DNA from: a virus
Reading direction: 5' to 3' (one strand)
Virus record (IMG/VR): IMGVR_UViG_3300037245_000888
Coordinates: 1-64,000 of that record
DNA length: 64,000 nt
Under the pieces are notes generated by a model. That model was not told the origin of the DNA. It searched no databases and saw only the letters and a program-made list of their open reading frames with translations. Shown one piece after another: positions 19,098 through 31,929 of this stretch. How positions within the stretch are numbered: the first letter of the stretch is position 1; every line of letters starts with the position of its first letter. A program made the translations under genes and the position numbers.

Positions 19098-19560
19098 TTT
19101 TAAAGTCTCCTTCTATAATTGTATAGTCTTCTTCATCTTCAATAGTCCACTCTAAATCGCATATATCTCTAATATCAGCCCATTTAGTATGCTTTTCATT
19201 TTCCCATATAACTATAAATTTTTCTGGCATTTCTTGATTAAAGAAGTTTAAAGCAACTTTCATAATTTTATCATTTAAAGCTTTTTTCTTTTGTTCATCT
19301 GTTTTCTTTACTGTTTTAACTTCTATCATAACAACATTATCAGAATCTACATGTTGAAATAAATCTTTATCGTCAATTACTAACCAAGTAGGAATATATA
19401 AATCATTGTCAATCTCTTTAGTCAAACTCATAGCTACATATGAGAAATACTCTTTTTTATTCGAATACAAGATACTGTTATTTTCTCCAACTTTAAAACC
19501 ATATGCTTTATCAGTAGTAATATAACTATTTCTGTTTACTTTATAAAACGCTTTTTTCAT
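19090..19560 (-). CDS. Unknown protein (156 aa)
   Basis: AAAGGAGTTCATC precedes the ATG. Residues VVMIEVKTVKKTDEQ and a preceding acidic strand recall the E-x-K part of PD-(D/E)XK folds, but the complete nuclease signature is not visible, so I leave it unassigned. It is the first gene after the palindrome-flanked promoter at 19617-19645. Confidence 0.75.
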   Translation of the reverse strand: MKKAFYKVNRNSYITTDKAYGFKVGENNSILYSNKKEYFSYVAMSLTKEIDNDLYIPTWLVIDDKDLFQHVDSDNVVMIEVKTVKKTDEQKKKALNDKIMKVALNFFNQEMPEKFIVIWENEKHTKWADIRDICDLEWTIEDEEDYTIIEGDFKNE

Positions 19561-19601
19561 GATGAACTCCTTTATAGTTGTTTTGTTTCCTTCTATTAAA
19601 T

Positions 19602-19620
19602 TACTTGCTTAACGCAAGTA
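19602..19620. promoter_or_regulatory. Operator-like palindrome over a -10 element
   Basis: TACTTGC (19602-19608), five bases, then GCAAGTA (19614-19620): perfect 7-bp arms overlapping the -10 and start region of the minus promoter. A further ACTTGC half-site lies at 19661. This is a repressor-like arrangement. Confidence 0.6.
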
Positions 19621-19645
19621 TAATCCTATATTATTAGTTTGTCAA
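19617..19645 (-). promoter_or_regulatory. Minus-strand sigma-A-type promoter
   Basis: On the minus strand TTGACA (19645-19640), a 17-nt spacer and TATACT (19622-19617). It serves 19560-18642 and is probably controlled through the overlapping palindrome. Confidence 0.8.
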
Positions 19646-19808
19646 GTATATAACATTAACTTGCATAATAATTAATATAAACGTATTATATCCAATTTAT
19701 TACATTTATAAGATCATCTATCATATAACTCTATATATCACTTCATAATCAATCTATAACCAACCTAATACAATAACAACCATCATCAGGCAAACCCTCT
19801 CACAACGT

Positions 19809-19855
19809 AAAAATAGAGCCATACAATATCATTATGATACCATACGACTCTATTT
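19809..19855 (-). terminator. Minus-strand terminator
   Basis: AAATAGAG (19811-19818) and CTCTATTT (19848-19855) pair, and the T run is read on the minus strand. It follows the gene ending at 19860. The remaining gap 19646-19808 is C-rich with nothing recognisable. Confidence 0.7.
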
Positions 19856-19859
19856 ATAT

Positions 19860-20162
19860 TTACCATTTCTCGCATCTACTACCATGTCGAGTATTATAAT
19901 TATTACAATTTATAAAAGTACAAAATAATCTAGTGTCAAACTTTCCCTCAATTCCATCGTCACATATTACAGTTATCTTATCAGGATAAGACGTTAATCT
20001 AATCCATTTATAATTATTACCCTTTGTAAGTCTTTTTTCATTTGATACACATTTTATAAACTTTGTTTTATCTAATGGATGTATCCCTGTTATTGAGAAA
20101 GAACGATTATATTTTTCTAATTCATAGTTTAAATTACCATTACAAATCACATTAGAAACCAT
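19860..20162 (-). CDS. Unknown protein (100 aa)
   Basis: AGGAGGAAATAAG precedes the ATG. The product is basic, Asn- and Cys-containing, and strand-rich (KWIRLTSYPDKITVICDDG). No family recognised. Confidence 0.75.
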   Translation of the reverse strand: MVSNVICNGNLNYELEKYNRSFSITGIHPLDKTKFIKCVSNEKRLTKGNNYKWIRLTSYPDKITVICDDGIEGKFDTRLFCTFINCNNYNTRHGSRCEKW

Positions 20163-20173
20163 CTTATTTCCTC

Positions 20174-20449
20174 CTAATATTTTTTACATTTTCCAAGTAT
20201 CTCACATAGCATTATTGGTTCAATTTTATTATATCCTAACTTATCAGCACATTCATTCGATACAATCAAACCATCACTATATAAATCAAATGATGATAAG
20301 TCAACACAATCCCAGACATGCTTATTAACTTTATTATATCCTATTATACGTCTACCATTAAACCAAAAGTCATATTTTGAGGTTCTCAATATCATATTTT
20401 TATTTTTAAGTAAATACATCATACAATTAATAGTTCCTTTTAAATTCAT
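20174..20449 (-). CDS. Unknown protein (91 aa)
   Basis: AAAGGAGGTGGGAACT precedes ATG 20449. The in-frame GTG nine bases upstream overlaps the ribosome site and is less likely. The product is beta-rich and basic with several Cys. It overlaps the upstream gene by 23 nt. Confidence 0.7.
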   Translation of the reverse strand: MNLKGTINCMMYLLKNKNMILRTSKYDFWFNGRRIIGYNKVNKHVWDCVDLSSFDLYSDGLIVSNECADKLGYNKIEPIMLCEILGKCKKY

Positions 20450-20753
20450 AGTTCCCACCTCCTTTCTGATTTACTTTTCTTTTATTTCCATCCATATCAC
20501 CTATACGAGATAATAAACTTTCTTCTTTCATTAGTTCCCATAATTTATTTTTTAATCCTATTTCATTTCTACCACTTACACTAATATTCATTTTAACTTT
20601 TTTATAAAAACATGTCCAAACGTATCCTGTTATTTTACCTTTATATTTTAATACTATTCTTTCTATTTTGTAATTATCTACGCTATATATTAAAATTGAT
20701 TTTCCTAAATATCGGTTATATGCTCCAATATTAATATTATATCTAATATTCAT
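20427..20753 (-). CDS. Unknown basic protein (108 aa)
   Basis: I use ATG 20753 (GGAAGG about 11 nt upstream). An in-frame ATG at 20762 is possible. Beta-strand-rich N-terminal two thirds and a Lys/Arg/Gly-rich tail (DGNKRKVNQKGGGNYEFKR). No family recognised. First gene after the promoter at 20802. Confidence 0.7.
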   Translation of the reverse strand: MNIRYNINIGAYNRYLGKSILIYSVDNYKIERIVLKYKGKITGYVWTCFYKKVKMNISVSGRNEIGLKNKLWELMKEESLLSRIGDMDGNKRKVNQKGGGNYEFKRNY

Positions 20754-20801
20754 AATTCCCATATCCTTCCAATCGATACCAACTAACTTATATCATCTAT
20801 T

Positions 20802-20830
20802 ATACTATACCTATTATATATAAATGTCAA
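20802..20830 (-). promoter_or_regulatory. Minus-strand sigma-A-type promoter
   Basis: On the minus strand TTGACA (20830-20825), a 17-nt spacer and TAGTAT (20807-20802). The gap 20831-21114 to its right is C-rich, gene-free, and holds nothing else I can name. Confidence 0.8.
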
Positions 20831-21114
20831 TAACTATTTAAAGAAATACCTTAATCAATACACCACCTAATCAATCCCCTATATTCCCATAACCATTCCA
20901 CTCACTAAAACCCTATACAATCCCACTACAACGCCTTATAATCAATTAACACTATTATCCCTATGTTATCGTATTACCCTATCAATTATAAACCCTTACA
21001 AAGCCATTTAATAAGATATGATTATCAATTTATACATTCAGCAGCCAACCACCTAAATTTTACCATATTGCAGCTAAGCATATAATAGACATATTAATAG
21101 GATCAATCCTAACG

Positions 21115-21147
21115 TAAAAAAGAACCCTATATAATAATAGAGTTCTT
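21115..21147 (-). terminator. Strong minus-strand terminator
   Basis: On the minus strand AAGAACTCTAT, a TATTAT loop, ATAGGGTTCTT (11 bp, one wobble) and six T. It ends the operon 25087-21157. Confidence 0.85.
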
Positions 21148-21156
21148 AAGTTTGAT

Positions 21157-21306
21157 TTATAACATTGCTTTAATTTCTTCTCTTAATCTTTCAACAACAC
21201 CAGCCCAATATTTTAAACCGTGAAAATTTACTGACACATTCTCATTTTCTAAAATCGCTAATACTGCATTTTTTGCCTCTTCTAATTCTTCAAATAACTT
21301 ACTCAT
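21157..21306 (-). CDS. Helical mini-protein (49 aa)
   Basis: ATG 21306 lies behind GGAGTGTATGAG. The product is an acidic helix (LFEELEEAKNAVLAILENE) followed by a second helix with a Trp. No family recognised. It is the last gene before the terminator. Confidence 0.65.
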   Translation of the reverse strand: MSKLFEELEEAKNAVLAILENENVSVNFHGLKYWAGVVERLREEIKAML

Positions 21307-21353
21307 CTCATACACTCCAATCATATTATAGTTAGTTTCATTTATTTTAATTA

Positions 21354-21725
21354 CTATTTAAGTAATATATCGGTGATCCCCTCAAATGCTTCATGAACAC
21401 CAAAACCATTAAATATTATTGTATTCAATTCTACAAGACTACCATCCCAACTTGATTCATCAAGACCAAACATTTTTCTAATCTCATCACTCATAATAAT
21501 ATCACCACAAGTTAATACTAAACTTAATACTGCACAATCTGTTTTAACACCAAAATGAGTGAATTTCTCATTTACAGGTTTTTCAGTAATGTCCCAACCT
21601 AATTCATCTATTCTATTAATGATTGCGTTCACTGCTAAATTTACCCCAACCTTATCAGACATACCCATATAAGTCGGATGATACAAAACTTGTTCTAATT
21701 CCTTTACGATATTAATATTTTTCAT
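21354..21725 (-). CDS. Unknown protein (123 aa)
   Basis: AAGGAGGTATTTAAA precedes the ATG. Soluble, acidic, mainly helical (VNLAVNAIINRIDELGW). No family recognised. Confidence 0.75.
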   Translation of the reverse strand: MKNINIVKELEQVLYHPTYMGMSDKVGVNLAVNAIINRIDELGWDITEKPVNEKFTHFGVKTDCAVLSLVLTCGDIIMSDEIRKMFGLDESSWDGSLVELNTIIFNGFGVHEAFEGITDILLK

Positions 21726-21776
21726 TTTAAATACCTCCTTAGTATTTATAGTTAGTTAACTACTTCACTCACTCAT

Positions 21777-21980
21777 CTAATGTAAAACAATATCATAGTT
21801 ATTTTCTACCTCAATTATAGCTTTAATACTTGCGTGATCCTTCCATTTTAAAGATATATCACTACCTAAATGAAAGCATTCACAAGGTAACATATTTTTA
21901 ATTATATATCTTAAACTTACAACCATATCATGCGACTCGACTTGTTTTACATATATTTTTAATAGATGCTTAAAAGTCAT
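21777..21980 (-). CDS. Unknown protein (67 aa)
   Basis: AAGGAGATGAAGAAA immediately precedes ATG 21980. A longer in-frame reading to 22073 overlaps the neighbour without a ribosome site and is rejected. Alpha/beta, with an LPCECFHLG stretch containing two Cys and a His. Function unknown. Confidence 0.7.
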   Translation of the reverse strand: MTFKHLLKIYVKQVESHDMVVSLRYIIKNMLPCECFHLGSDISLKWKDHASIKAIIEVENNYDIVLH

Positions 21981-21993
21981 TTTCTTCATCTCC

Positions 21994-22296
21994 TTAATTA
22001 GAATAACATTTTGAAAGTTTAGGTACAAACATATTAATAAAACAAAAGTTTCGTCTATCAATAAATATTTCAATTCCCATTACGTCATGTTTAAAGTCAT
22101 AGCTATCAGCGTTTAATAACTCATATAATTTTAAATTAAACTCACTATGAGCCAGAAGTAAATCCATTGATAAACCTTTTATATCATTATCCAATTTACA
22201 ATCTTTTAAAATTCTTAATGCTATCTTTTTAATCAATTCTAATGTATTGTTATCCACGTTTAAAAAATCATATTTATCTTTAATTTTGTCACTCAT
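21994..22296 (-). CDS. Unknown protein (100 aa)
   Basis: GGAGGTATAAACA precedes the ATG. Helical, Leu/Lys/Asp-rich, soluble. No family recognised. Confidence 0.75.
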   Translation of the reverse strand: MSDKIKDKYDFLNVDNNTLELIKKIALRILKDCKLDNDIKGLSMDLLLAHSEFNLKLYELLNADSYDFKHDVMGIEIFIDRRNFCFINMFVPKLSKCYSN

Positions 22297-22322
22297 TGTT
22301 TATACCTCCAATTTTATAGTGT

Positions 22323-22403
22323 TCAATTATTCTTAATCTCACAACAAACAATAATCACAAATGGTATTAATATAATCAATCCCATAAGTATTATACATTT
22401 CAT
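22323..22403 (-). CDS. Membrane micro-peptide (26 aa)
   Basis: ATG 22403 lies behind GTGAGGTATAGAGT. Residues MKCIILMGLIILIPFVIIVC form one membrane span with a short charged tail. It sits between two well-supported genes with no room for another. Moderately supported. Confidence 0.5.
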   Translation of the reverse strand: MKCIILMGLIILIPFVIIVCCEIKNN

Positions 22404-22406
22404 ACT

Positions 22407-22904
22407 CTATACCTCACAATCCTTTACATTATCAAAATACAGTTTAAAATCCACTATCAAACTATTTACAATATCTAAATCCAGCTTATCAAATAACAAT
22501 TGTCTCCACTCAAAACATATTGTATCGATATCGCCTGTTAATCTATTCTCTAGCATTTCGAGAGGTGTAAATACTTCACTAACGCATAGATGATTAATAT
22601 TATATATATAACAAATATCTTGTATATACTCGTTATCGGGATAATCAATTTTAGCTTGATCCACTAGTTGAATATATAAGTCTTTAAATGTCATGCTAGT
22701 GTCAAATCTCACAATTTTAAAAGGTGCTTTCGTCTCATCATAATCAAACTTGCTAATCTCGAATACTGTTTGATCCATTTTAAAACTCATGTAATCATTT
22801 TTAACTTGTTCAATTGTCTCATGTGAATGTATATTAATTACAATAAAGCTACAATATTTATGATTCTTTTTAGTGTAGAAATTTATACAATAATATTTAC
22901 TCAT
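22407..22904 (-). CDS. Unknown protein (165 aa)
   Basis: AAGGTAGGTATATAAA precedes the ATG. Soluble alpha/beta protein with a strand-rich start (YYCINFYTKKNHKYCSFIVI) and an acidic helical C-terminal half. No family recognised. Confidence 0.75.
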   Translation of the reverse strand: MSKYYCINFYTKKNHKYCSFIVINIHSHETIEQVKNDYMSFKMDQTVFEISKFDYDETKAPFKIVRFDTSMTFKDLYIQLVDQAKIDYPDNEYIQDICYIYNINHLCVSEVFTPLEMLENRLTGDIDTICFEWRQLLFDKLDLDIVNSLIVDFKLYFDNVKDCEV

Positions 22905-22938
22905 TTTATATACCTACCTTCATATTTACATAAGTTGT

Positions 22939-23049
22939 TTAAACTATACCTATTACTATCATTCCAATCGGTAAACATATAATAATACATATGCTTACTT
23001 TTGTGTCTGCTGATAATTTCTTGATCCTATTAACCAATTTATTAATCAT
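22939..23049 (-). CDS. Membrane micro-protein (36 aa)
   Basis: ATG 23049 lies one base after the stop of the gene at 23051-23191 (TAAGATG), with no separate ribosome site, so it would rely on coupled re-initiation. A basic N-terminus and a hydrophobic C-terminus (ICIIICLPIGMIVIGIV) predict one span. Confidence 0.45.
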   Translation of the reverse strand: MINKLVNRIKKLSADTKVSICIIICLPIGMIVIGIV

Positions 23050-23050
23050 C

Positions 23051-23191
23051 TTATAATACTTTAGTAATATACGTCATACATTCATCATATGAACCACTTT
23101 TCAATAATGCATCTGTATTGCTATATACATAACTTTTACCGTCTTCAGTTAATATTGTAAATCTACTTACTCTAGTTTTAATTTTACTCAT
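23051..23191 (-). CDS. Mini-protein (46 aa)
   Basis: ATG 23191 lies behind GGTAGGTAATAAA. Beta-rich start (VSRFTILTEDGKSYVYSN) and helical end. Unknown function. Confidence 0.6.
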   Translation of the reverse strand: MSKIKTRVSRFTILTEDGKSYVYSNTDALLKSGSYDECMTYITKVL

Positions 23192-23223
23192 TTTATTACC
23201 TACCTTTTTATAGTTTAGTTAGT

Positions 23224-23595
23224 TTAGTTTAATACTTCAGTTTCAATTGCTTCATACTCTATTAATAGAGTGCTTTCTAGATTATCCAATGTTAAACCTT
23301 TTGCAACACTACCAAAGTTTTCAGAACTATAATAACTTACTGCATCAATAGCCTTTTGAGTATCGTTTGACATATCAGTATCACAATAGCTTTTTACATC
23401 ATCCCAATCAATCCAATCGTCAGAGATATCAATATATAAATCAAATAGTAAGTAAGTTTCTGCATCATCATCATAATTAGTTTTAAGAATATAATAACAG
23501 TCTTCTAAAGTATCTTTCTTTACTAAAATTATACCGTGCTCCAAACTAACATCACCAAAATTCTCATATCCGTTTATAACTTTTAAATCTGTCAT
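23224..23595 (-). CDS. Acidic unknown protein (123 aa)
   Basis: AAAGGAGCGTGCAAA immediately precedes ATG 23595. The in-frame ATG at 23628 lacks such a site. I count about 29 Asp/Glu in 123 residues, with Asp-rich runs (YIDISDDWIDWDD). It neighbours the even more acidic product at 23675. No family recognised. Confidence 0.75.
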   Translation of the reverse strand: MTDLKVINGYENFGDVSLEHGIILVKKDTLEDCYYILKTNYDDDAETYLLFDLYIDISDDWIDWDDVKSYCDTDMSNDTQKAIDAVSYYSSENFGSVAKGLTLDNLESTLLIEYEAIETEVLN

Positions 23596-23674
23596 TTTGC
23601 ACGCTCCTTTAATCCCTTGAAAACTCACTAAACAATTTTAGTAAGATTATGAAGGAATTAACCTTCATTGTTAA

Positions 23675-24313
23675 TTAATTAATTCTATAAATATAATAAG
23701 TTTCATCATCTACTACTTCGGTATTTTCATTTCCATCATAAGATGCTAATGTATGAGCGATTCCATCAATAGAAATACATTCTTCAATAGCTTCATCCCA
23801 ATCAATCAAGTTGTTATTTTTTGCGATTTCTGATAACTGCTCTTCTCCAAAATTATCTCTATACCATTCTACTGCTCCACCTTGATAATCGCATAAGTAG
23901 TCAAGAAAATCTTCTTCGGTTGTGCAGTTAGCTTCTTCCATTTCTTCAGTCAATCTATTTGTTTCGTTCCCTTCTTCATCTTCACAACAATCTTCTTCTC
24001 TAATATCATTCATATAAAACTCATATGATTCTCTCATAGCATCCTCGAACCATTCTTCATTTAAACAGTTGTTAATAATCCAACTTTGGAAACCTTCTGA
24101 AAATGACTGAAGTCCCATATCATCAATTAAATTATGAATGGATTCTATTGCAAGCTCTTCTGCTTTGTCTTCTGTCACAACTAAATACTCGCATCCTTCA
24201 AACTCGATAACATCATCACTGTAGCCTTCTTCTGGAAAATCAATATCAAGTAAATTTTCTGTGATTGTGTAGCCTTCCATTTTTAATATTACTATCATTT
24301 TCTCATTTAACAT
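23675..24313 (-). CDS. Highly acidic protein (212 aa), DNA-mimic candidate
   Basis: AAAGGTGGTATGGT precedes ATG 24313. The in-frame ATG at 24352 lies upstream of that site. By count it has 61 Asp/Glu against 9 Lys/Arg, a net charge near -52, spread along the whole chain and densest around residues 90-130 (REEDCCEDEEGNETN). Phage proteins of this charge (Ocr, ArdA, some nuclease inhibitors) mimic DNA. I see no specific sequence match, so this is an inference from charge alone. Confidence 0.75.
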   Translation of the reverse strand: MLNEKMIVILKMEGYTITENLLDIDFPEEGYSDDVIEFEGCEYLVVTEDKAEELAIESIHNLIDDMGLQSFSEGFQSWIINNCLNEEWFEDAMRESYEFYMNDIREEDCCEDEEGNETNRLTEEMEEANCTTEEDFLDYLCDYQGGAVEWYRDNFGEEQLSEIAKNNNLIDWDEAIEECISIDGIAHTLASYDGNENTEVVDDETYYIYRIN

Positions 24314-24369
24314 ACCATACCACCTTTTCAAATCCCTCAAATTTAATCCCATTGATTAAACTCTTATTA

Positions 24370-24407
24370 GTAAGTATAAACTAATTGGATCAACTGCTTA
24401 TACTTAC
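24370..24407. terminator. Hairpin between leftward genes
   Basis: GTAAGTATAA (24370-24379) and TTATACTTAC (24398-24407) are perfect 10-bp arms with an 18-nt loop. No clear T run follows on the minus strand, so it may be an attenuator, a processing site or a protein-binding site. Confidence 0.5.
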
Positions 24408-24417
24408 CGATTAAAGT

Positions 24418-24576
24418 TTAAATGTTATTAATGTAATCATTTAATATTGTTTGTGCGTTTATTCTTCTATGCAGTTGTTGGCATTCTTCAATTGTGATAT
24501 TACCACTTAAAGCATTTTCAGTTGCTTGTAAATATAATTTATGAAGTTGTTCATTATTCATTGTTTTAATAGTCAT
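24418..24576 (-). CDS. Helical mini-protein (52 aa)
   Basis: AAAGGAGATCACACAA precedes ATG 24576. The product (NNEQLHKLYLQATENALSGN, then a second helix) is hydrophilic and looks like a two-helix hairpin. No family recognised. Confidence 0.65.
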   Translation of the reverse strand: MTIKTMNNEQLHKLYLQATENALSGNITIEECQQLHRRINAQTILNDYINNI

Positions 24577-24658
24577 TTGTGTGATCTCCTTTTAGTTTGT
24601 CTCATCAGTGAATAAGTAACCAACTTATACAGACGGTTGTTAGACCGTTTCGACATTT

Positions 24659-24727
24659 TTAATCAATCCAAACATCATTTTTTAAAAAATTTTTATTCCA
24701 TTCTGATAACGCTTTTTTATTTACCAT
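24659..24727 (-). CDS. Possible micro-peptide (22 aa)
   Basis: ATG 24727 follows GGAGGAAAAC at good spacing and opens 22 codons (MVNKKALSEWNKNF...). Supported only by the ribosome site and by the gap it fills. Confidence 0.4.
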   Translation of the reverse strand: MVNKKALSEWNKNFLKNDVWID

Positions 24728-24739
24728 GTTTTCCTCCAG

Positions 24740-25087
24740 TTATCCCACTATGTACATATTGTACGGCATTGGTAAATCATAATTTTCATATGCTTTATTA
24801 TCCAATATTCTAATTACTTCATTTGACCAAGTCCCGTTTGACACTTCATATATAATACCTTTTTCAGTTACTATTGTGTAATCATTAACATTGCAAAATA
24901 TTTTAGTTTTCTTAATTTCTTCTTTTATTGAATCGTTTTGATTCCATGTACAAAACTTACAAGTTTCATGTTTTGGAGTTTCTCCATATTTTTCAAAGTG
25001 TAATAATAACATTTGTAAATAGCCTTTATAATTAATAGAATTATTTTTCTTTAATTCTTCCAATACCTCAACTTTAGTTTTCAGCAT
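24740..25087 (-). CDS. Unknown protein (115 aa)
   Basis: AAAAGGAGAAAATAAA lies just before ATG 25087. The in-frame ATG at 25111 precedes that site and is rejected. It contains CKFCTWN and one further Cys, so a partial metal site is possible. First gene of the long leftward operon, behind a leader of about 155 nt from the promoter at 25248. Confidence 0.75.
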   Translation of the reverse strand: MLKTKVEVLEELKKNNSINYKGYLQMLLLHFEKYGETPKHETCKFCTWNQNDSIKEEIKKTKIFCNVNDYTIVTEKGIIYEVSNGTWSNEVIRILDNKAYENYDLPMPYNMYIVG

Positions 25088-25111
25088 TTTATTTTCTCCT
25101 TTTATTCTCAA

Positions 25112-25247
25112 ACAATACTAGACAATTCTAGCACTCTATAGAAAATAAAAATTATTCAGTTTTCAATGTTCTGCGTTCGCTTGCATACTTCATGCCCTAA
25201 ACAGTAACATCCTACCTTAAGGCTATCATCACGACAGGCTTGCTCTG
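25112..25247 (-). promoter_or_regulatory. Structured leader with rRNA-leader-like segment
   Basis: The leader read leftward from the promoter at 25248 contains small inverted repeats (GCATGAAGTATGC, GCGAACGC, CTAGACAATTCTAG) and TTGAAAACTGAATA (25166-25153). The last resembles the boxA-type antitermination segment of Firmicutes rRNA operons. No known riboswitch recognised. Confidence 0.4.
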
Positions 25248-25276
25248 AGTATAATCAATTAAAGGTACTATGTCAA
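25248..25276 (-). promoter_or_regulatory. Minus-strand promoter of the leftward operon
   Basis: On the minus strand TTGACA (25276-25271), a 17-nt spacer and TATACT (25253-25248). It sits just left of the first DnaA box, so DnaA could influence it. Confidence 0.8.
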
Positions 25277-25312
25277 TTATAAGCTATGCAGTGTTTCCAA
25301 TGGTTTCATGGG

Positions 25313-25828
25313 TTATCCACAGATTGCAGCAATGGGATCAAAAGCAGCTATATCAACGGTTACAAGTGATTTACTAAAATAGTTATCAACAGATTTCATT
25401 ATTTTAAAACAAAAGTTATCCACAGGTAAAATAGATTTTATTGTTTTACTTATATAGAAGAAAGATATCAATTTTTAGACTTTTGAATCCTTGTATAGTA
25501 GGCTATGACTGGTATGCAGCCATTTTAAATTATGGGAATATTTATTGATCTTTAAATTGTTATAAAATAAATGGTAAAATGTGGTAGAATAATTAAGTTT
25601 AATTAATTGTATAAAATCTATTGACAAATAATATATAAATATGGTAGAATGGGCTGACACCCTTTTAAAGTTGTTTGTAATTTTAATGTTATTAACAGTT
25701 GTGGATAACTTTTGTGGATATGTGGATAAAATGTGGATAACTTCTTGAAATTGTGGATAACTCATGATATACTCTATTTAGGGTTAGTTATCCCCAGAAA
25801 CTGGGGATAAAAATAAATCTGTGGATAA
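25313..25828. other. Replication origin with DnaA-box clusters
   Basis: Seven perfect DnaA boxes occur: TTATCCACA at 25313 and 25416, and the reverse form TGTGGATAA at 25700, 25721, 25732, 25752 and 25820. Single-mismatch boxes lie at 25383, 25713, 25788 and 25802. The two clusters face each other across about 275 bp of AT-rich DNA (25425-25699), which could unwind. The 25788 and 25802 near-boxes form a perfect hairpin (TTATCCCCAG, AAA, CTGGGGATAA). No phage dnaA is seen in the window, so host DnaA is the probable initiator. Confidence 0.85.
25577..25650 (+). repeat. Iterated GGTAGAAT element in the AT-rich origin segment
   Basis: AAATGTGGTAGAAT (25577-25590) and AAATATGGTAGAAT (25637-25650) are near-identical copies 60 bp apart. 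The second ends in the TAGAAT hexamer of a possible promoter (TTGACA 25621-25626, 18-nt spacer). They may be initiator or unwinding repeats. Confidence 0.5.
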
Positions 25829-25856
25829 CTTGAAAACTGCATATAATAATTGTAAA

Positions 25857-25927
25857 ATTGACATAATCTCAAAATTGTAATCATTACAGATAAACAGTTT
25901 ATGTCAATCTAATTGTAATGATTACAA
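25857..25927. promoter_or_regulatory. Compound palindrome next to the origin (Fur-family-like 7-1-7 boxes)
   Basis: TTGTAAT-C-ATTACAG (25875-25889) and TTGTAAT-G-ATTACAA (25913-25927) are 7-1-7 dyads with centres 38 bp apart. The first is enclosed by perfect 10-bp arms ATTGACATAA (25857-25866) and TTATGTCAAT (25899-25908). The format resembles operators of Fur/PerR/Zur-type regulators. The actual binder is unknown. Confidence 0.5.
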
Positions 25928-26640
25928 ATTTATCACGATATCAATATTCACATTATGAGTATAAAATAATAGTTGGATATCCCACTAGATAAACATAAAA
26001 TCATTTTCCATAATATGTTAAACAGAAAAAATTTATCCAAAAATTTACCAAATATTGGTAAAAATCAATTCTGAAAATCCCATATTTACGAACCCAAAAA
26101 TTTCCAAGAACACGTGAAAGTAAATTGCAGCCTCAGACATATCTCTCCCACCGGCCACGCACACCTCACAATATATTTCCTTACCGGTAGCAAATCTTTC
26201 TATCATATAATCTACACAATATATTCTCATCTCACCAACACAACATATCTTAACAATCCACTCTGCTCATCTCCAATCAATCCTCACAATCCCATATCTC
26301 ATCTGTCTCCTATACTATCCCAGAATACCCATCTCACCACATTTGTCCACTATACAATCTATCCACTCAATAAAACTGATCGTCTCCACTGACATCATCT
26401 ATATCACATTTCCAATCTCGTCACATATTCTACCTATTAATAGTGACCAATCATGCACATAACAGAATATATACCTAGATTACATATTTGTTCCATTACA
26501 ACAAAACTAATCACACACTACCCTAAACAACTTACATAACTATCTCACTTGTACTCTCACAACACCGATCAAGCACCGTCATAACAATATATCGATAACA
26601 TGATGCTAATTATCCATTGAACGATAACTGTGTTTATATG
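25928..26640. other. Gene-free C-rich origin flank
   Basis: No gene is supported. It is C-rich on the + strand until about 26630, where GC skew reverses to G-rich. It contains the palindrome TTTACCAAATATTGGTAAA (26044-26062, 8-bp arms) and two CGATAAC repeats (26593, 26622) at the switch. The stretch 26641-26850 is G-rich and also gene-free. Confidence 0.7.
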
Positions 26641-26850
26641 CTATGTTATGTGTGTCACATGGGTATGAAAGTTTAATTGAGATTGCTGCAGGAATTATAT
26701 AGAATATTAGTTTATATTGTTTATAGGGTTTTGTTTAAAATTAAAATTAGAAATGAAATAAGAGTTCTCGGTGGGTAGGTAAACGCATATCTGGGTGTGG
26801 AAAGGTGGCATGGGGTATTTTGGATAAACTAAATAAATCAAAACTAATCC

Positions 26851-26879
26851 TTGACATCATATTAAATGTGGTGTAAGAT
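26851..26879 (+). promoter_or_regulatory. Sigma-A-type promoter of the right arm
   Basis: TTGACA (26851-26856), a 17-nt spacer and TAAGAT (26874-26879), with ATAGGAA beginning 8 nt later. Confidence 0.8.
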
Positions 26880-26922
26880 ATGAAATATAGGAATGTAAGA
26901 TAAACTATAAAGGAGAGAATGA

Positions 26923-27282
26923 ATGAAAACTGAATCAACTAAATTAGATGCAAGAGACAACGAGAAATTATTTCCATATGAAAAGGTTCCATGTAAACAC
27001 TGTCAAGAATACAAAACGTTCGAAGGACATGATGGGTGCTTAGGGACATTGGATGGTATTGCTAACGCTTGTTGCAATCATGGAGGACATGGTGAAGGAG
27101 CATACGTACAATTTTATGATGGAGTTACAATCCATGGAGAAGACGCAATACTTATTCAAGAAATACTAAAACGTAATAGAAGTAATAATTCTAAAATGGA
27201 TAGGTTAGCGTTTCTTGCTGGATCTGTTAAATATATTGCTCAAGAGATTCAGGAAATGGAGAAAATGGAGGAGAATAAATAA
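26923..27282 (+). CDS. Unknown Cys/His-rich phage protein (119 aa)
   Basis: AAAGGAGAGAATGA precedes the ATG. A central block CKHC, a further Cys, then ACCNHGGHGEGAYVQF contains many potential metal ligands. The part AYVQFYDGVTIHGEDA looks like a conserved phage protein, but I cannot name the family. A helical C-terminus follows. It overlaps the next ATG by one base. Confidence 0.8.
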   Translation: MKTESTKLDARDNEKLFPYEKVPCKHCQEYKTFEGHDGCLGTLDGIANACCNHGGHGEGAYVQFYDGVTIHGEDAILIQEILKRNRSNNSKMDRLAFLAGSVKYIAQEIQEMEKMEENK

Positions 27283-27662
27283 TGTTGTACTATGAAAAAC
27301 ACAAACATGAAATGCCATATGTTCCTTTTTATTTACTTGATGAAGGAATAAGAGATTTAGTTTGCGTATTTAACAGACTAGGATACACAACTATATTTTC
27401 ATGTGAAGGACATGAGGATCACCAGTGTCCAGACATTATATTCAGTATAGCTGTTACTGATGAAGATATCCTAAAGCTGGCAAACAAGATGTTAATGGGA
27501 TCATATAAAGGATGTTTTTACAAGTGGGTCAGAAAGTGTGATGATTCAATACATATTAATTGGATGTGGAAATTGGACTACCAAAATAATGAGTTATCGA
27601 AAAGAGATACTAAACAAGAACTTGAGAATATAGTTAAACTATTGGATGCATTTGTAAAATAA
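27282..27662 (+). CDS. Unknown protein with FSCEGHEDH motif (126 aa)
   Basis: GGAGGAGAATAA precedes the ATG. Residues GYTTIFSCEGHEDH, with Cys, Glu and two His close together, suggest a metal or catalytic site. Small phage hypothetical proteins with a 'T-x-FSCEGH' core are common. Function unknown. Confidence 0.8.
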   Translation: MLYYEKHKHEMPYVPFYLLDEGIRDLVCVFNRLGYTTIFSCEGHEDHQCPDIIFSIAVTDEDILKLANKMLMGSYKGCFYKWVRKCDDSIHINWMWKLDYQNNELSKRDTKQELENIVKLLDAFVK

Positions 27663-27679
27663 TATAAAAGGAGAGTAAA

Positions 27680-27850
27680 ATGGGTATTTTAGAAGATTTA
27701 TATGAAAACGCAATTGAGAAAAGAGAGTGTAAAATGTGTAAGCATTGTGGCAATTATGAAGCATGGGAAAATGGATTAGTTTATGAGTCTGACACTTGTG
27801 ATGGGTGTGAGGATAATGGAAAATGGGAAATTGGGACTTTGTCTGAATAG
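27680..27850 (+). CDS. Zinc-ribbon mini-protein (56 aa)
   Basis: AAAGGAGAGTAAA precedes ATG 27680. CKMCKHCGN and, about 22 residues later, CDGC give four well-spaced ligands. Acidic. The next gene's ribosome site begins at its stop. Confidence 0.75.
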   Translation: MGILEDLYENAIEKRECKMCKHCGNYEAWENGLVYESDTCDGCEDNGKWEIGTLSE

Positions 27851-27862
27851 GAGGATTAATAG

Positions 27863-28087
27863 ATGAATAAAAATACTGAATTAACAAATGAAAGACTTGA
27901 GTCATGTATTGACGGAATAAATTATATTAAAAACGATATAAACTCAATAGAAAATATGGTTACAATAACAACCTCTGGAAGTGATAGAAGCAAAATAATA
28001 AATAAGATACATAAAATTTTAGAATCTGTTGTCCAACTTCAGAATGTATTGACATCAATAAACAAGGAGAACCCAAATGAACAATAA
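27863..28087 (+). CDS. Helical small protein (74 aa)
   Basis: AGGAGGATTAATAG precedes the ATG. Predicted all-helical with possible coiled-coil C-terminus (IHKILESVVQLQNVL). It overlaps the next gene by 11 nt. Confidence 0.75.
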   Translation: MNKNTELTNERLESCIDGINYIKNDINSIENMVTITTSGSDRSKIINKIHKILESVVQLQNVLTSINKENPNEQ

Positions 28088-28238
28088 CAACACATGCACA
28101 TTAAAAGATTGCAGACTAAGAGTTTGCCTAGAAAAGATTCCAGAGGAAGATAGAGATTATTCAGAGGACTATCCATTTAATGCTTATGGTATAGAATGTC
28201 ACGTACCGTGTCATATTAGAGTAAAGGAGAAGAAGTAA
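28077..28238 (+). CDS. Cysteine-containing mini-protein (53 aa)
   Basis: ATG 28077 lies behind AAGGAGAACCCAA inside the previous gene. Cys residues at CTLKDC, C and ECHVPC suggest a metal-binding or disulphide unit. Unknown function. Confidence 0.65.
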   Translation: MNNNNTCTLKDCRLRVCLEKIPEEDRDYSEDYPFNAYGIECHVPCHIRVKEKK

Positions 28239-28239
28239 A

Positions 28240-28785
28240 ATGTATGATAAATTTATCGTTATAAAAAGAGAAAACTTACACAATTTAAACAATGAAGAAA
28301 GAAAAACTTTAGATTTGCTACTAAATAAGGTTAGTTCAAAAAATGAATATTATATAGTAAATGTAGATGAGCCATATTCTGAACAGGTTAAAGATTTGAT
28401 ATTGGGCAGGAAGTCAAACTATAATAGCCGTGAGATATTCTCATTAGTCGGTGAATGTGGTGCTGGTAAAACTACCCTGTCAGATTCAATGTCTCACTAT
28501 CTATCAATGCCAAGACATCACCCAAATATTGAATGTGCTATGGATAAAGCTATCCTAACAGGATTTGGTTCAGCACGAGATCAAGTATTCATGGATGAGT
28601 TTGTATTTGAACCACAGGTATATGTATATGATGGGGATAAACAGTGGAATGATTTTACAATACAAACTTATACAATGAATGATTGTCATCAAGGAATGTT
28701 TCATGCAAATAACTTTACAGATATAGAAAAAGAAGAAATGAGATCTGTAATTGCATATTATAAGAAATTAAATGAGGAGAAATAG
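28240..28785 (+). CDS. Protein with unusual P-loop insertion (181 aa)
   Basis: AAAGGAGAAGAAGTAAA precedes the ATG. Residues 1-60 (MYDKFIVIKRENL; YYIVNVDEPYSEQV) look like a small stand-alone phage protein. After them comes SLVGECGAGKTTL, a good Walker A loop. MDEFVFEPQVYVYDGD could supply the Walker B acid, though the hydrophobic strand before it is short. At 181 residues it is minimal for a P-loop NTPase. Substrate unknown. Confidence 0.75.
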   Translation: MYDKFIVIKRENLHNLNNEERKTLDLLLNKVSSKNEYYIVNVDEPYSEQVKDLILGRKSNYNSREIFSLVGECGAGKTTLSDSMSHYLSMPRHHPNIECAMDKAILTGFGSARDQVFMDEFVFEPQVYVYDGDKQWNDFTIQTYTMNDCHQGMFHANNFTDIEKEEMRSVIAYYKKLNEEK

Positions 28786-29028
28786 ATGAAAATTAAGATA
28801 GTAAAAAATAAAATTATTTTCCTTGGAGGGATAATGTTCACAGATTTTTTCTACTTAAATGAAATTCTTACGCTTATCGAAGAAGATGGAAAATACAGAT
28901 TAACATATGAGGTTAATGATTTGGTTACAAATAAAGTTTGTGATGGGTATTGGTGTGTTCCATTTGAAACCAAAATAGAAGTATTGGAACATCTATCTGA
29001 ATATTGTGAATATGTAGAGATTAAATAA
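28786..29028 (+). CDS. Unknown small protein (80 aa)
   Basis: GAGGAGAAATAG precedes the ATG, which abuts the previous stop. Strand-rich (KIKIVKNKIIFLGGIMFTDF) with an acidic C-terminus. No family recognised. Confidence 0.75.
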   Translation: MKIKIVKNKIIFLGGIMFTDFFYLNEILTLIEEDGKYRLTYEVNDLVTNKVCDGYWCVPFETKIEVLEHLSEYCEYVEIK

Positions 29029-29037
29029 ATTAAAAAC

Positions 29038-29066
29038 TTGACAACTAATAAATTATAATGTAGTAT
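29038..29066 (+). promoter_or_regulatory. Sigma-A-type promoter
   Basis: TTGACA (29038-29043), a 17-nt spacer and TAGTAT (29061-29066), with ATAGGAA 6 nt later. Confidence 0.75.
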
Positions 29067-29105
29067 TGTAAATAGGAAGAAGCTAAATATTAAAGGAGAT
29101 CAATA

Positions 29106-29285
29106 ATGACATACGATGAAATTTTAAGAGACATAGTGAACAGATTAACAATTGAAACAACAATAACAACTGGTGAAAACACATACAATACCAGCAACAG
29201 GGAAATTATTGTTTCATCAAAACTAAAACTTAAAGGTAAAATAATATCTAGTAGTCAATCTAGCACGAACATAAGTGTTTACTAA
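29106..29285 (+). CDS. Small Thr/Ser-rich protein (59 aa)
   Basis: ATG 29106 lies behind AAAGGAGATCAATA and is first after the promoter at 29038. A helical start, then a Thr/Ser-rich strand region (TIETTITTGENTYNTSN). No family recognised. Confidence 0.65.
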   Translation: MTYDEILRDIVNRLTIETTITTGENTYNTSNREIIVSSKLKLKGKIISSSQSSTNISVY

Positions 29286-29308
29286 CTAAAACTAAAAGGA
29301 GATTAATA

Positions 29309-29857
29309 ATGTCTAAAGGTAAAAATAAACAGAAATCAAAACGCAAAAATCACACTAAACGTAATCCAATCGACAAAAGTACATATACTATTATTAAAGA
29401 AGATGATCCAAGATTATATGAAGTTGGTTCAACTGTATATTTAAAGGATGAAGTTGGATTAGATAACCTAAAGAAAATTTCCAAGAAAATGAAATTGACA
29501 GCACTCAAGCTAGATGGAGCAGGATTAGCAATGTGTCAATGTGATACACCTTTCCAAACTCTAGCAATGTTCGTCATGAATATCATAGGCACCAATAAAT
29601 TTGTTACTGTGATCAATCCTAAAATTAAACATAAGAGTTTAAAGAAAGTTGAAATGGAAGAAGGGTGTTTGAGCGTTGAAGGTAAATATATGGTTAAACG
29701 TCCTGAGAGTGCTACGGTATCTTATTACTGCTTAGAAGAAGGTAAAGTTATTACTGAGAAATTAGAAGGATTCCAATTGAGGGTGTGGCTTCATGAAGAA
29801 TTCCATTGTAGAGGGAAAACTATGAAAGACATAGGTAAATTAGTTGAGGAGATTTAA
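29309..29857 (+). CDS. def: Peptide deformylase
   Basis: Removes the formyl group from the initiator Met of new proteins, using Fe or Zn. All three family motifs are present: GAGLAMCQ (70-77, for GxGLAAxQ), EGCLS (118-122, with metal ligand Cys120) and HEEFH (162-166, with two metal His and the catalytic Glu). At 182 residues it is normal length. A Lys/Arg-rich N-terminal extension of about 20 residues could hold it at the ribosome. AAAGGAGATTAATA precedes the ATG. Phage deformylases are known; they may speed host or phage protein maturation. Confidence 0.9.
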   Translation: MSKGKNKQKSKRKNHTKRNPIDKSTYTIIKEDDPRLYEVGSTVYLKDEVGLDNLKKISKKMKLTALKLDGAGLAMCQCDTPFQTLAMFVMNIIGTNKFVTVINPKIKHKSLKKVEMEEGCLSVEGKYMVKRPESATVSYYCLEEGKVITEKLEGFQLRVWLHEEFHCRGKTMKDIGKLVEEI

Positions 29858-30334
29858 ATGGATATTAATGTAAGTATTACAGAGGCCAAACAATTGTTAA
29901 AATATGATTGTGAATATTGCAACAAGAAATTTAGAAGAGAAATTTTAGTTTCGGATAATAAAAAAGAGGTTGAAAAATTAGAAGAAGAAATTGCAGACCA
30001 CTTTAAAACATGTAATCAAAATACTGAAAATTATATAAAATTAAAAAGTTGTCCTTTCTGTGGTAAAGGTGCACATTTAAAATTTTATACTAAAGTTAGG
30101 ACTACTACGGAACACATAGAGGGTGACTGTCCTTGGGGTTCAGATAGTTATGATAATGATTATACTTATTATGACCTTTATTGTTATATAGATTGCCATT
30201 CGAAGGACTGCTTATCTAGACATATTGCTTTGCTCCCTGTCAATGATTTAAAAAGCACAAATAAAGATACTACAGAAAAGTGTGTACATGAGATAGAGAG
30301 TCTAATTTCTAAATGGAATATTCGTGGTTTATAA
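29858..30334 (+). CDS. Two-zinc-finger protein with Lar-like C-terminal domain (158 aa)
   Basis: GAGGAGATTTAA precedes the ATG, abutting the deformylase stop. The N-terminus has CEYCNKKF and a later HFKTC, a C2HC-type finger. The C-terminal part has CPFCGKGAHLKF, further Cys (CHSKDC) and a closing SKWNIRG. This resembles the Lar restriction-alleviation family, which typically begins CPFCG and ends W-N-x-R. A role in evading host restriction is plausible but unproven. Confidence 0.75.
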   Translation: MDINVSITEAKQLLKYDCEYCNKKFRREILVSDNKKEVEKLEEEIADHFKTCNQNTENYIKLKSCPFCGKGAHLKFYTKVRTTTEHIEGDCPWGSDSYDNDYTYYDLYCYIDCHSKDCLSRHIALLPVNDLKSTNKDTTEKCVHEIESLISKWNIRGL

Positions 30335-30344
30335 GGAGAATTAA

Positions 30345-30536
30345 ATGCAAAATAAAACACAAGTAAGAGTAGATACATTATCCAATTTAATAGTTGGTAT
30401 CAACAGAGCATTAAATTTATACGATGGTGAATTGGAAATTGAAGTAAAAGATAACCAGCTGCAAATTAATGATAAATTAACTGGTGAATATTGTACAGTT
30501 AGATTAGGTGATAATGTTAAGGTGAAGGGAGAGTAA
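30345..30536 (+). CDS. Unknown protein (63 aa)
   Basis: AAGGAGAATTAA precedes the ATG. Helix followed by a strand-rich second half (ELEIEVKDNQLQINDKL) suggesting a small beta fold. No family recognised. Confidence 0.75.
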   Translation: MQNKTQVRVDTLSNLIVGINRALNLYDGELEIEVKDNQLQINDKLTGEYCTVRLGDNVKVKGE

Positions 30537-30539
30537 ATT

Positions 30540-30848
30540 ATGAATAGGAATATTAAAATAACATTAATCATCCTTGCAATCATCTTACTCTTCTCAGGAT
30601 GCGTAAAATTAAATATCGAAGTAAATAAAGAGCTTGAAGGAGAAATATACAATATAGTTGACTTTAAAATAAGCTCAATGAACTCAGATAAAGTTGTATT
30701 TGTTGATTACTATGGGACTACAAGAGTATCATGTTATAGTTTTCCAAAAGGATTCAACAGAAATAATATGGATGAATATATGGTTGAAATAAAAGCAAGT
30801 GTATTAAGCGGATATAGGATCGTTAAGTTTTATAGAAAAGGAGAGTAG
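30540..30848 (+). CDS. Putative lipoprotein (102 aa)
   Basis: AAGGGAGAGTAAATT precedes the ATG. A basic start, a hydrophobic core (ITLIILAIILL) and the lipobox LFSGC with Cys21 predict processing by signal peptidase II and anchoring on the outer face of the cytoplasmic membrane. The mature part is small and strand-rich. Surface phage lipoproteins often block superinfection; here that is an inference. Confidence 0.75.
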   Translation: MNRNIKITLIILAIILLFSGCVKLNIEVNKELEGEIYNIVDFKISSMNSDKVVFVDYYGTTRVSCYSFPKGFNRNNMDEYMVEIKASVLSGYRIVKFYRKGE

Positions 30849-30851
30849 ATA

Positions 30852-31064
30852 ATGAATAGAGAGTTAATAGAAATAAGATCATATCTATTTGATAAATTTC
30901 ACTCATGTTTAGATACTGCAATGAAATTTGACTTAGTTGTCGAAGATCATTATAAGAGGTGTGGGAACTGTAAATGTAAATCTAAACATCCTGTATCATG
31001 TGGCAGAAGTATAAAGGAAAGTAATTTGAGATATATGTTAGGTAATAAAGGAGATAAACAATAA
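30852..31064 (+). CDS. Small Cys-cluster protein (70 aa)
   Basis: AAAGGAGAGTAGATA precedes the ATG. CGNCKCKSKHPVSCG in the middle offers four Cys and one His for a metal ion. It overlaps the next ATG by one base (TAATG). Confidence 0.75.
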   Translation: MNRELIEIRSYLFDKFHSCLDTAMKFDLVVEDHYKRCGNCKCKSKHPVSCGRSIKESNLRYMLGNKGDKQ

Positions 31065-31204
31065 TGAACATTAAACTAATAATTAAAAAGTTAGAAAAAG
31101 AGAACGCTAGAATAAATGATAGACTGGCACCTAAACATAAATATAATTGTGATCGGATAGCTAAGTTGAGAAAGAAGATGAGACTTAAAATTAAGGAGAA
31201 ATAA
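31064..31204 (+). CDS. Basic helical mini-protein (46 aa)
   Basis: ATG 31064 follows AAAGGAGATAAACA. The product is very Lys/Arg-rich (IIKKLEKENARINDRL; KLRKKMRLKIKEK) and probably binds nucleic acid or a membrane protein. Unknown. Confidence 0.65.
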   Translation: MNIKLIIKKLEKENARINDRLAPKHKYNCDRIAKLRKKMRLKIKEK

Positions 31205-31206
31205 AT

Positions 31207-31929
31207 ATGCACAAATCAAACAACAAATATAAAACACAACGACAACAATTTAACATTTTAATATTCATATCATTCTTAATCATCATATTAGTCAGTATTT
31301 CATTATATTCAAACACAGTTAAATTACAGTCTACAAACACTGATCTATCACTGGAATGCAATCTTACCTCAACTCAATTAACTATCGCTCAGGATGCTGT
31401 ATCAGAGCTTGAGATGGATGTTGATGAGTTGGAGATAGTTAATATTGACTTGGAGAATGATAATCTACTTTTACTTGATCTTTGTAAAACATTAAATGAA
31501 AGAATAGATTTCTTTATTGATAATATGGATGAATCATTTATTACAAATTATCCACTTATAGGAAATGAAAGAAGAATGATGTATAGATTAGTTGAAGCAG
31601 AAGTAACAGCTTATGGTATTGAAGAAAAGATGAATGTAGCTCATGTGTTAATTAATAGAGTATATAGCAATCAATTCCCAAATACAATTGAAGGAGTTAT
31701 ATTCCAAGAACGTCAGTTTAGTTGTATTGCAGATGGTAGATATGATGATGCTATGATTTCAAAGTCTAGTGTAGATGCTGTAGATTTAGCAATTAGAAAT
31801 AAAGATTTAACATATGGTAGTTTGTACTTCATGAGTGAAGCTGCAAGTGACTCTGGAAATGTAAGTTGGTTTAAAAGTAAATTAGAATTTGTAATGAATG
31901 ATCGAAGTGGACATTCGTTTTATAAATAA
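31207..31929 (+). CDS. Membrane-anchored SleB-type cell-wall hydrolase
   Basis: AAGGAGAAATAAAT precedes the ATG. Residues 16-33 are one membrane span. Residues 40-100 are an acidic coiled coil, and residues 117-240 match the SleB / Hydrolase_2 domain: RLVEAEVTAYG with the candidate catalytic Glu, NVAHVLINRV, FPNTIEGVI and QFSC. SleB-type enzymes cut peptidoglycan as lytic transglycosylases or amidases in spore germination. In a phage it could act in lysis or local wall opening. The anchor would hold it at the outer face of the membrane. No holin is adjacent, although small membrane proteins follow. Confidence 0.8.
   Translation: MHKSNNKYKTQRQQFNILIFISFLIIILVSISLYSNTVKLQSTNTDLSLECNLTSTQLTIAQDAVSELEMDVDELEIVNIDLENDNLLLLDLCKTLNERIDFFIDNMDESFITNYPLIGNERRMMYRLVEAEVTAYGIEEKMNVAHVLINRVYSNQFPNTIEGVIFQERQFSCIADGRYDDAMISKSSVDAVDLAIRNKDLTYGSLYFMSEAASDSGNVSWFKSKLEFVMNDRSGHSFYK

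What the first reader, a model, noticed from the sequence alone, without database searches (positions are those of the whole stretch)
25313..25828. Bacterial-style DnaA origin in a phage-like genome
Seven perfect and four near-perfect DnaA boxes lie in 516 bp in two opposed clusters around an AT-rich centre, as in bacterial bipartite origins. The phage brings its own helicase, primase and polymerase but no dnaA is visible here, so host DnaA would license phage replication. This ties phage copy number to the host cell cycle, as expected of a plasmid-like prophage.
Basis: partly seen in the sequence, partly recalled or inferred. Interest (0 to 1): 0.72.

Follow-up and report, generated by a model that had tools for sequence, protein, structure and literature searches.

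The report
Bacterial-style replication origin in a phage
A large bacterial virus carries a dense array of binding sites for its host's own replication-start protein at the place where its genome copying most likely begins, and distant virus relatives of other bacteria keep the same array in the same kind of place, so the virus probably borrows the host's starter while bringing the rest of the copying machinery itself.

Summary
Confirmed: seven perfect and four one-mismatch DnaA boxes lie at 25313-25828. 5000 dinucleotide shuffles of that stretch never gave more than one perfect box. The record (111,832 bp, 127-bp end repeat) has only one other perfect box and no DnaA domain. Between the clusters lies the least stable 100-bp window of the whole record (ranks 8, 12 and 12 at 60, 150 and 200 bp).

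The strongest evidence is comparative. Lactococcus phage 949 has the same four-block gene map and a bipartite cluster of seven perfect boxes between the small minus-strand block and the plus-strand replication block. IMG/VR record G052, which shares the replication genes, has a six-box array at its own minus/plus junction. So this is very probably a host-DnaA-dependent, or DnaA-assisted, phage origin.

The plasmid-like-prophage inference is not supported. The 949-group phage phiL47 makes clear plaques; 0 of 10 plasmid relatives carry such an array; no partition, Rep or repressor family was found. Cell-cycle coupling is untested.

Against: global GC-skew minimum lies elsewhere; most DnaB relatives lack the array; 949 also has iteron-like repeats, so a phage initiator is possible.

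The parts
25112..26922 (.). about 1.8-kb non-coding gap between the last minus-strand small gene and the first plus-strand gene; holds the proposed origin
   Evidence: ORF list; the short ORFs inside it (25313-25471, 25475-25765, 26114-26392) overlap boxes or had no Pfam match and are taken as chance ORFs (inference)
25313..25424 (+). left DnaA-box cluster: perfect boxes 25313 and 25416, TTATCAACA at 25383; 3' ends point right, into the AT-rich centre
25538..25637 (.). proposed unwinding element: least stable 100-bp window of the 111.8-kb record
   Evidence: rank 1 at 100 bp; ranks 8, 12, 12 at 60, 150, 200 bp
25700..25760 (-). right core array: perfect boxes 25700, 25721, 25732, 25752 (start spacings 21, 11, 20 bp, i.e. 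whole helical turns) plus ATATCCACA at 25713; 3' ends point left into the centre
25788..25828 (.). outer boxes of the right cluster: TTATCCCCA 25788+ and 25802-, perfect 25820-
25671..25694 (-). run of eight NAN triplets 5 nt 3' of box 25700; possible DnaA-trio element, unproven
   Evidence: orientation relative to the known trio element could not be verified
25876..25926 (.). two palindromes TGTAATNATTACA (25876, 25914), the only two in the record; possible operator for a Fur-family-like or phage regulator
   Evidence: shuffle mean 0.03 per record
18642..25111 (-). block of small minus-strand genes left of the origin
26923..64000 (+). plus-strand early/replication block right of the origin (continues to about 65.7 kb of the record)
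41659..42228 (+). conserved small protein directly upstream of DnaB; candidate helicase loader (inference)
   Evidence: homologue in 70 of 92 DnaB-relative loci; AlphaFold model, best structural match DnaD C-terminal part, Z 5.7, a level that can be chance; no profile match to DnaD
42236..43747 (+). DnaB-like replicative helicase
   Evidence: PHROG 19, E 2.6e-32; PF03796 just under its cut-off
43760..44800 (+). DNA primase
   Evidence: PHROG 47, E 1.9e-19
46202..49741 (+). DNA polymerase III alpha subunit
   Evidence: PF07733, E 1.7e-44
35186..36076 (+). tyrosine recombinase/integrase-like protein; not by itself evidence of lysogeny, since phage 949 is also annotated with one
   Evidence: PF00589, E 2.4e-22; 949 ORF1

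Best explanation
25313-25828 is the replication origin, or the main one, of a roughly 111.7-kb phage of a low-GC Firmicute-type host. Host DnaA binds the two clusters, the phased right array (boxes 21, 11 and 20 bp apart) nucleates a DnaA oligomer, and the unstable centre at about 25540-25690 opens. The phage's own DnaB-like helicase is then loaded, perhaps by the small protein encoded just upstream of it, and the phage primase and Pol III alpha take over. SHOWN by computation: the boxes, their non-randomness, phasing, the unstable centre, absence of DnaA from the record, the phage replisome genes, and recurrence of the array at the minus/plus gene-block junction in phage 949 and G052. INFERRED: DnaA binding, strand opening, helicase hand-over and origin activity. 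Nothing supports cell-cycle-limited copy number; a lytic phage would more likely use abundant host DnaA to start first-round (theta) replication early in infection.
For: Boxes and statistics. Density equal to or above chromosomal oriC: best 516-bp windows near dnaA in 10 Firmicute genomes hold 3-10 boxes with one mismatch or fewer and 0-4 perfect, versus 11 and 7 here (those loci reach only about 1.5 kb either side of the dnaA C-terminus). Unstable centre. Phage 949: same +/-/+/- map; homologous DnaB, primase, Pol III, RecD2, portal and other structural genes by phmmer; nearly the same shape of cumulative GC-skew curve; 7 perfect boxes in two clusters between the minus block and the plus block. 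In six 949-group phages the cluster-to-cluster distance is 249 bp in 6 of 6, and 250 bp in the more distant PMBT69; the spacing of boxes 2 and 3 is 42, 41, 42, 21, 41 and 32 bp, i.e. it changes by whole helical turns. G052: array at 10351-10425, spacings 23, 20, 12, 11, in the 8404-12259 minus/plus gap, near its GC-skew minimum of 8513. No DnaA in the record.
Against: The global cumulative GC-skew minimum of this record is at 579, not at the array, which sits at a local minimum only; skew follows gene orientation, and third-position skew on the coding strand is not higher on the presumed leading-strand side (0.338 for the 1-17.5 kb plus genes versus 0.21 for the 27-65 kb plus genes). Of 31 records tested (this one, 5 phages, 10 plasmids, 15 IMG/VR) only this one, 949 and G052 have a real array. 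TR-TP2 has no such boxes in its minus/plus gap. Box columns in the 949 group are not significantly more conserved than their surroundings: 81% versus 73% invariant, 143 of 419 mask shifts at least as high. In 103 IMG/VR arrays the 3' side is not the more AT-rich one (38 for, 60 against), so no general polarity of unwinding element was found. The 949 region also has iteron-like repeats, which points to a phage initiator there.
Confidence: 0.7

Rival explanations
1. Hybrid origin of the phage P1 oriR kind: an unrecognised phage initiator binds its own sites (iterons, or the TGTAATNATTACA pair) and DnaA only assists opening.
For: 949 has seven copies of a 26-nt repeat right of its DnaA boxes; the phiL47 paper names ORF89 a putative replication initiator; the record has two palindromes next to the right cluster and nowhere else; most ORFs are of unknown function.
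Against: No iteron array in the window region; no Rep or initiator family among 124 ORFs scanned with Pfam or in the PHROG results shown (one search showed 25 of 30 families).
Confidence: 0.3
2. DnaA sponge: the array titrates host DnaA to stop new rounds of host chromosome replication during infection, as datA-type clusters do.
For: High number of strong boxes; a virulent-type phage would profit; phased arrays are good DnaA binders.
Against: A sponge needs no unstable centre, no bipartite layout and no fixed place at the gene-block junction, all of which are seen here and in 949.
Confidence: 0.12
3. The boxes regulate early transcription or DNA entry, as proposed for the phage T5 injection stop signal, which is said to contain DnaA boxes.
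For: Position between divergent early blocks; promoter-like sites in the region (27 found, 13.8 expected); T5 passage seen in PMC13250531.
Against: The T5 signal lies in a terminal repeat (recalled); this array is 25 kb from the record's ends and beside an unstable region.
Confidence: 0.08
4. Plasmid-like prophage with host-cell-cycle-coupled copy number.
For: Integrase-like gene at 35186; DnaB relatives include 108-148-kb plasmids; the record closes with a 127-bp end repeat.
Against: 0 of 10 plasmid relatives have the array; no ParA/Rep/repressor family found; the structurally closest named group is 949, of which phiL47 makes clear plaques.
Confidence: 0.1
5. Chance or low-complexity artefact.
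For: The region is AT-rich.
Against: 0 of 5000 local shuffles reach even 2 perfect boxes.
Confidence: 0.01

Closest known systems
Lactococcus 949-group phages (Audreyjarvisvirus: 949, AM1, AM4, WRP3, P1048, phiL47)
   Same: Four-block gene map, homologous replication and structural genes, two DnaA-box clusters with phased boxes at the minus/plus junction beside a very unstable stretch
   Different: Proteins only about 25% identical; box orientation in the clusters differs (949: +,-,- then four +); 949 adds iteron-like repeats; other host
Bacterial chromosomal oriC (DnaA boxes plus DNA-unwinding element)
   Same: Multiple perfect boxes, unstable AT-rich element, box density like oriC regions of 10 Firmicute genomes
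   Different: No dnaA/dnaN neighbour, no DnaA in the record; no oriC-length homology in 291 genomes of the class of Clostridium cuniculi, only matches of 23-86 bp
Phage P1 oriR and iteron plasmids (recalled)
   Same: Phage origin that uses host DnaA boxes
   Different: No RepA or iterons recognised here
Phage T5 injection stop signal (passage in PMC13250531)
   Same: DnaA boxes in a phage genome
   Different: Other place and proposed role
Large Firmicute plasmids with a DnaB relative (e.g. L. salivarius pMP1046B, B. velezensis pBvelV314_2, C. difficile 127-kb plasmid)
   Same: Related DnaB-like helicase (23-32% identity)
   Different: No DnaA-box array; pMP1046B carries ParA and an HTH regulator

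Membership tests
DnaA-dependent replication origin (oriC type) | Cluster of DnaA boxes beyond chance | tested here: met
DnaA-dependent replication origin (oriC type) | Adjacent unstable unwinding element | tested here: met
   rank depends on window size
DnaA-dependent replication origin (oriC type) | Position at the global GC-skew minimum | tested here: not met
   Local minimum only; global minimum at 579; near-coincident in G052. Supportive, not a strict requirement
DnaA-dependent replication origin (oriC type) | DnaA binding and origin activity | not testable with these tools
   needs bench work
BUS / DnaA-trio module | DnaA box followed within 16 bp by three or more NAN triplets in the right orientation | tested here: inconclusive
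   Eight NAN triplets 5 nt from box 25700 on its own strand, three on the other strand. The rule of three is met by 42% of positions in this record; about 44 flank readings were tried; the box/trio orientation was not verified (PMC8287927 section 13 read, PMC8235120 passages)
949-like phage lineage | Shared gene map and homologous core genes | tested here: met
   distant (about 25% identity), so a relative and not a member of the genus
Phage-plasmid (plasmid-like prophage) | Plasmid replication/partition genes or a repressor | tested here: not met
   None found by Pfam in 124 ORFs, 123 of them in the set of 145; unknown families cannot be excluded
Phage-plasmid (plasmid-like prophage) | Extrachromosomal maintenance in a lysogen | not testable with these tools
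   No host is known for this record
P1 oriR-like or iteron origin | Rep protein plus iterons | tested here: inconclusive
   No iterons, no Rep family found; unknown initiators possible
DnaD/DnaB(Bsu)-type helicase loader (for 41659-42228) | DnaB_2 domain | tested here: inconclusive
   Not reported by Pfam; fold match to DnaD Z 5.7, rmsd 4.5, 78 aligned; hhalign P 0.22 and 0.12, reversed controls 0.24 and 0.26

The most novel reading that the evidence does not exclude
A lineage of large Firmicute phages with its own polymerase, helicase and primase has given up (or never had) an initiator and starts replication at an oriC mimic with host DnaA, with a small phage protein encoded next to DnaB bridging DnaA or the opened DNA to the phage helicase. 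More widely, helically phased DnaA-box arrays would be a common, mostly unrecorded initiation or host-control device of phages: at least 120 IMG/VR stretches hold three head-to-tail boxes (scan stopped at its limit) versus 9 in a full scan with the reversed pattern; 0 of 50 of these records examined carry a DnaA domain; spacings peak at 11-12, 21-23 and 32-34 bp.
Probability: 0.3. Interest if true: 0.75.

Novelty: new variant of a known kind. Interest (0 to 1): 0.52.

Why it matters
Origins of most large phages are unmapped. If host DnaA fires this origin, a phage with its own replisome still depends on the host at one step, initiation, which makes DnaA a host-range and defence bottleneck and offers a simple in vivo test: box changes in the 949 group, whose host Lactococcus is tractable. 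It also gives a DNA signature (phased boxes at the minus/plus gene-block junction beside the least stable stretch) by which other phage origins can be predicted.

Tried and rejected
Plasmid-prophage reading: rejected as unsupported. Capture of a host oriC: 291 genomes of one class gave only short matches, 23-86 bp, and blastn found no plasmid match. GC skew as proof of origin: does not work here; skew follows gene orientation. DnaA-trio: inconclusive. General 3'-side AT polarity in IMG/VR arrays: 38 for, 60 against in 103 arrays with both flanks (17 of 120 dropped for short flanks). Base-level conservation of boxes in the 949 group: not significant, 143 of 419 shifts. DnaD-like loader: fold hint only; PDB sequence search gave nothing useful. 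The pair pattern TTATNNACA..TTATNNACA alone does not discriminate: 10 of 31 records hit, and the reversed control also hits in 13 of 31, this record included; I therefore count as arrays only those with several perfect boxes. Close relatives by single protein: none. Host not identified: GC and relatives only suggest a low-GC Firmicute.

Literature: searches of a partial open library. No paper found that describes DnaA-box origins in the 949 group. phiL47 (PMC3888941) and the 949 isolates paper (PMC5371800) have zero occurrences of 'DnaA' in the main text (passages seen). Pseudomonas phage vB_PseuGesM_254 has an Ori-Finder-predicted origin with DnaA boxes (PMC11512268, passages), so DnaA boxes in a predicted phage origin are not new in themselves. 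Papers of subscription journals, including the 949 genome paper (not held), were not seen; that 949 itself is virulent is recalled.

Full report
OBSERVATION. Seven perfect boxes in 516 bp against a shuffled mean of 0.012 (maximum 1 in 5000) is not chance. The window is bases 1-64000 of a 111,832-bp IMG/VR virus record; I read the rest. A 127-bp repeat at both ends suggests a closed map of about 111.7 kb. The other perfect box (43389-) is alone. No DnaA domain exists in the record.

ANATOMY. The region is an about 1.8-kb gap (25112-26922) between a block of small minus-strand genes and the plus-strand block that encodes ligase, DnaB-like helicase, primase, Pol III alpha, RecD2-like and UvrD-like helicases and anaerobic ribonucleotide reductase. 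Left boxes are '+', right boxes mostly '-', so their 3' ends face an AT-rich centre. The right core has start spacings 21, 11 and 20 bp (perfect boxes), i.e. about whole helical turns. The centre holds the least stable 100-bp window of the record, 25538-25637, although rank changes with window size: 8, 1, 12, 12 for 60, 100, 150, 200 bp. Right of the boxes lie two palindromes TGTAATNATTACA, the only two in the record.

RELATIVES. The DnaB-like protein finds Thomasclavelia phages (35%), 108-165-kb plasmids of Bacillus, Limosilactobacillus, Ligilactobacillus, Vagococcus, Paenibacillus and Clostridioides, and Lactococcus 949-group phages. Among 16 records searched for perfect boxes, only this one and phage 949 show a cluster. 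In 949 it is seven perfect boxes at 19140-19514, bipartite, with 20-22-bp steps on the right side.

Phage 949 has the same gene-block map (+, -, +, -) and nearly the same shape of cumulative skew curve, with homologous DnaB, primase, Pol III, RecD2 and structural proteins including the portal, and the box cluster sits between the minus block and the plus block (an HNH gene lies there too). blastn with the 949 region matches 22 Lactococcus records, RefSeq duplicates included; the PMBT69 match does not cover the boxes. I checked boxes in six phages of this group plus PMBT69. The distance from the third to the fourth box is 249 bp in 6 of 6 and 250 bp between the corresponding boxes of PMBT69; the second-to-third distance takes the values 42, 41, 42, 21, 41, 32. 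These are close relatives, so the constancy is suggestive only, and the base-level test was not significant.

A third case is G052 (99,443 bp), found through DnaB. Its replication genes are close (e.g. ligase E 3e-123), no structural gene matched at E 1e-5, and its array (six boxes with one mismatch or fewer within 516 bp, five of them at 10351-10425 with spacings 23, 20, 12, 11) lies in its minus/plus gap beside its GC-skew minimum. Thus three phages with different hosts or structural genes have the array at the same kind of junction. The other records have none; in TR-TP2 the corresponding gap has no box with one mismatch or fewer inside it except one at its very edge, 4596. The trait is patchy.

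WIDER PATTERN. None of the 50 records examined of these 120 has a DnaA C-terminal domain, so they are not simply host oriC-dnaA contigs, though origins away from dnaA are not excluded. Spacings peak at 11-12, 21-23 and 32-34 bp. 99 of 120 arrays lie outside ORFs although 65% of random points lie inside. Where both neighbours are known, divergent flanks (24) outnumber convergent ones (9), with 29 in tandem. Microviruses also carry such arrays.

MECHANISM. Shown: sites, non-randomness, phasing, instability, gene content, recurrence. Inferred: host DnaA binds, opens the centre, and the phage helicase is loaded. The protein encoded directly upstream of DnaB (41659-42228) is found in 70 of 92 DnaB-relative loci. 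Its AlphaFold model (mean pLDDT 75.9) aligns best to part of DnaD (Z 5.7, 78 residues, rmsd 4.5), a value that can be chance, and profile comparison gave P 0.12-0.22, against 0.24-0.26 for reversed controls. I offer it only as a candidate loader.

WHAT SPEAKS AGAINST. Global skew minimum elsewhere; patchy distribution; no general AT polarity; non-significant base conservation; iteron-like repeats in 949 that hint at a phage initiator. Hence 0.7 for a DnaA-recognised origin, with a hybrid origin as the main rival (0.3; the two overlap, since a hybrid origin is also DnaA-recognised).

Origin and host-DnaA parts: plausible and strengthened. Plasmid-like prophage and cell-cycle control: not supported; the plasmid relatives lack the array and the closest structural relative belongs to a group with a reportedly virulent member.

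NOVELTY. DnaA boxes in phage origins are known (P1, recalled; a predicted case in PMC11512268). An oriC-like array without a recognised initiator in a phage with its own Pol III replisome, recurring in distant relatives, is in my view a new variant of a known kind.

Noticed in passing
L004:1840-1901; L273:3003-3118; L274:3001-3083; L093:2458-2488: Microviruses carry phased arrays of perfect DnaA boxes: 4 in Capybara microvirus Cap1_SP_240 (steps 21, 11, 21), 6 in bajarodmic virus 609 (21, 21, 22, 21, 22), 5 in Gokushovirus WZ-2015a (21, 21, 21, 11), 3 in an IMG/VR contig with microvirus proteins (11, 11). Role unknown.
   Followed up: partly
window 25876-25888 and 25914-25926: Two copies of the palindrome TGTAATNATTACA, the only ones in 111.8 kb, resemble 7-1-7 boxes of Fur-family regulators (Zur/PerR; resemblance recalled); they could couple the phage to host metal or peroxide sensing.
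   Followed up: partly
L149:7607-8022 (Lactococcus phage 949): Seven copies of a 26-nt repeat (and longer imperfect ones) right of the DnaA boxes; iteron-like.
   Followed up: no
record bases 73547-73840, minus strand (L001): AgrB-like match (profile 3-101 of 185) in an about 130-aa ORF next to an amidase-type endolysin gene; may be a holin-like membrane protein or a truncated quorum-sensing gene.
   Followed up: partly
record bases 102361-104203: Second non-coding gap of about 1.8 kb, without a DnaA-box cluster.
   Followed up: no
window 29309-29857: Phage-coded peptide deformylase (PHROG 2890).
   Followed up: no
window 29858-30334: Weak match to the restriction alleviation protein Lar (PF14354, E 4.5e-5, below its cut-off).
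   Followed up: no
IMG/VR loci L020-L139: At least 120 viral contigs with three head-to-tail perfect DnaA boxes, far above the reversed-pattern control of 9; spacings in whole helical turns.
   Followed up: partly
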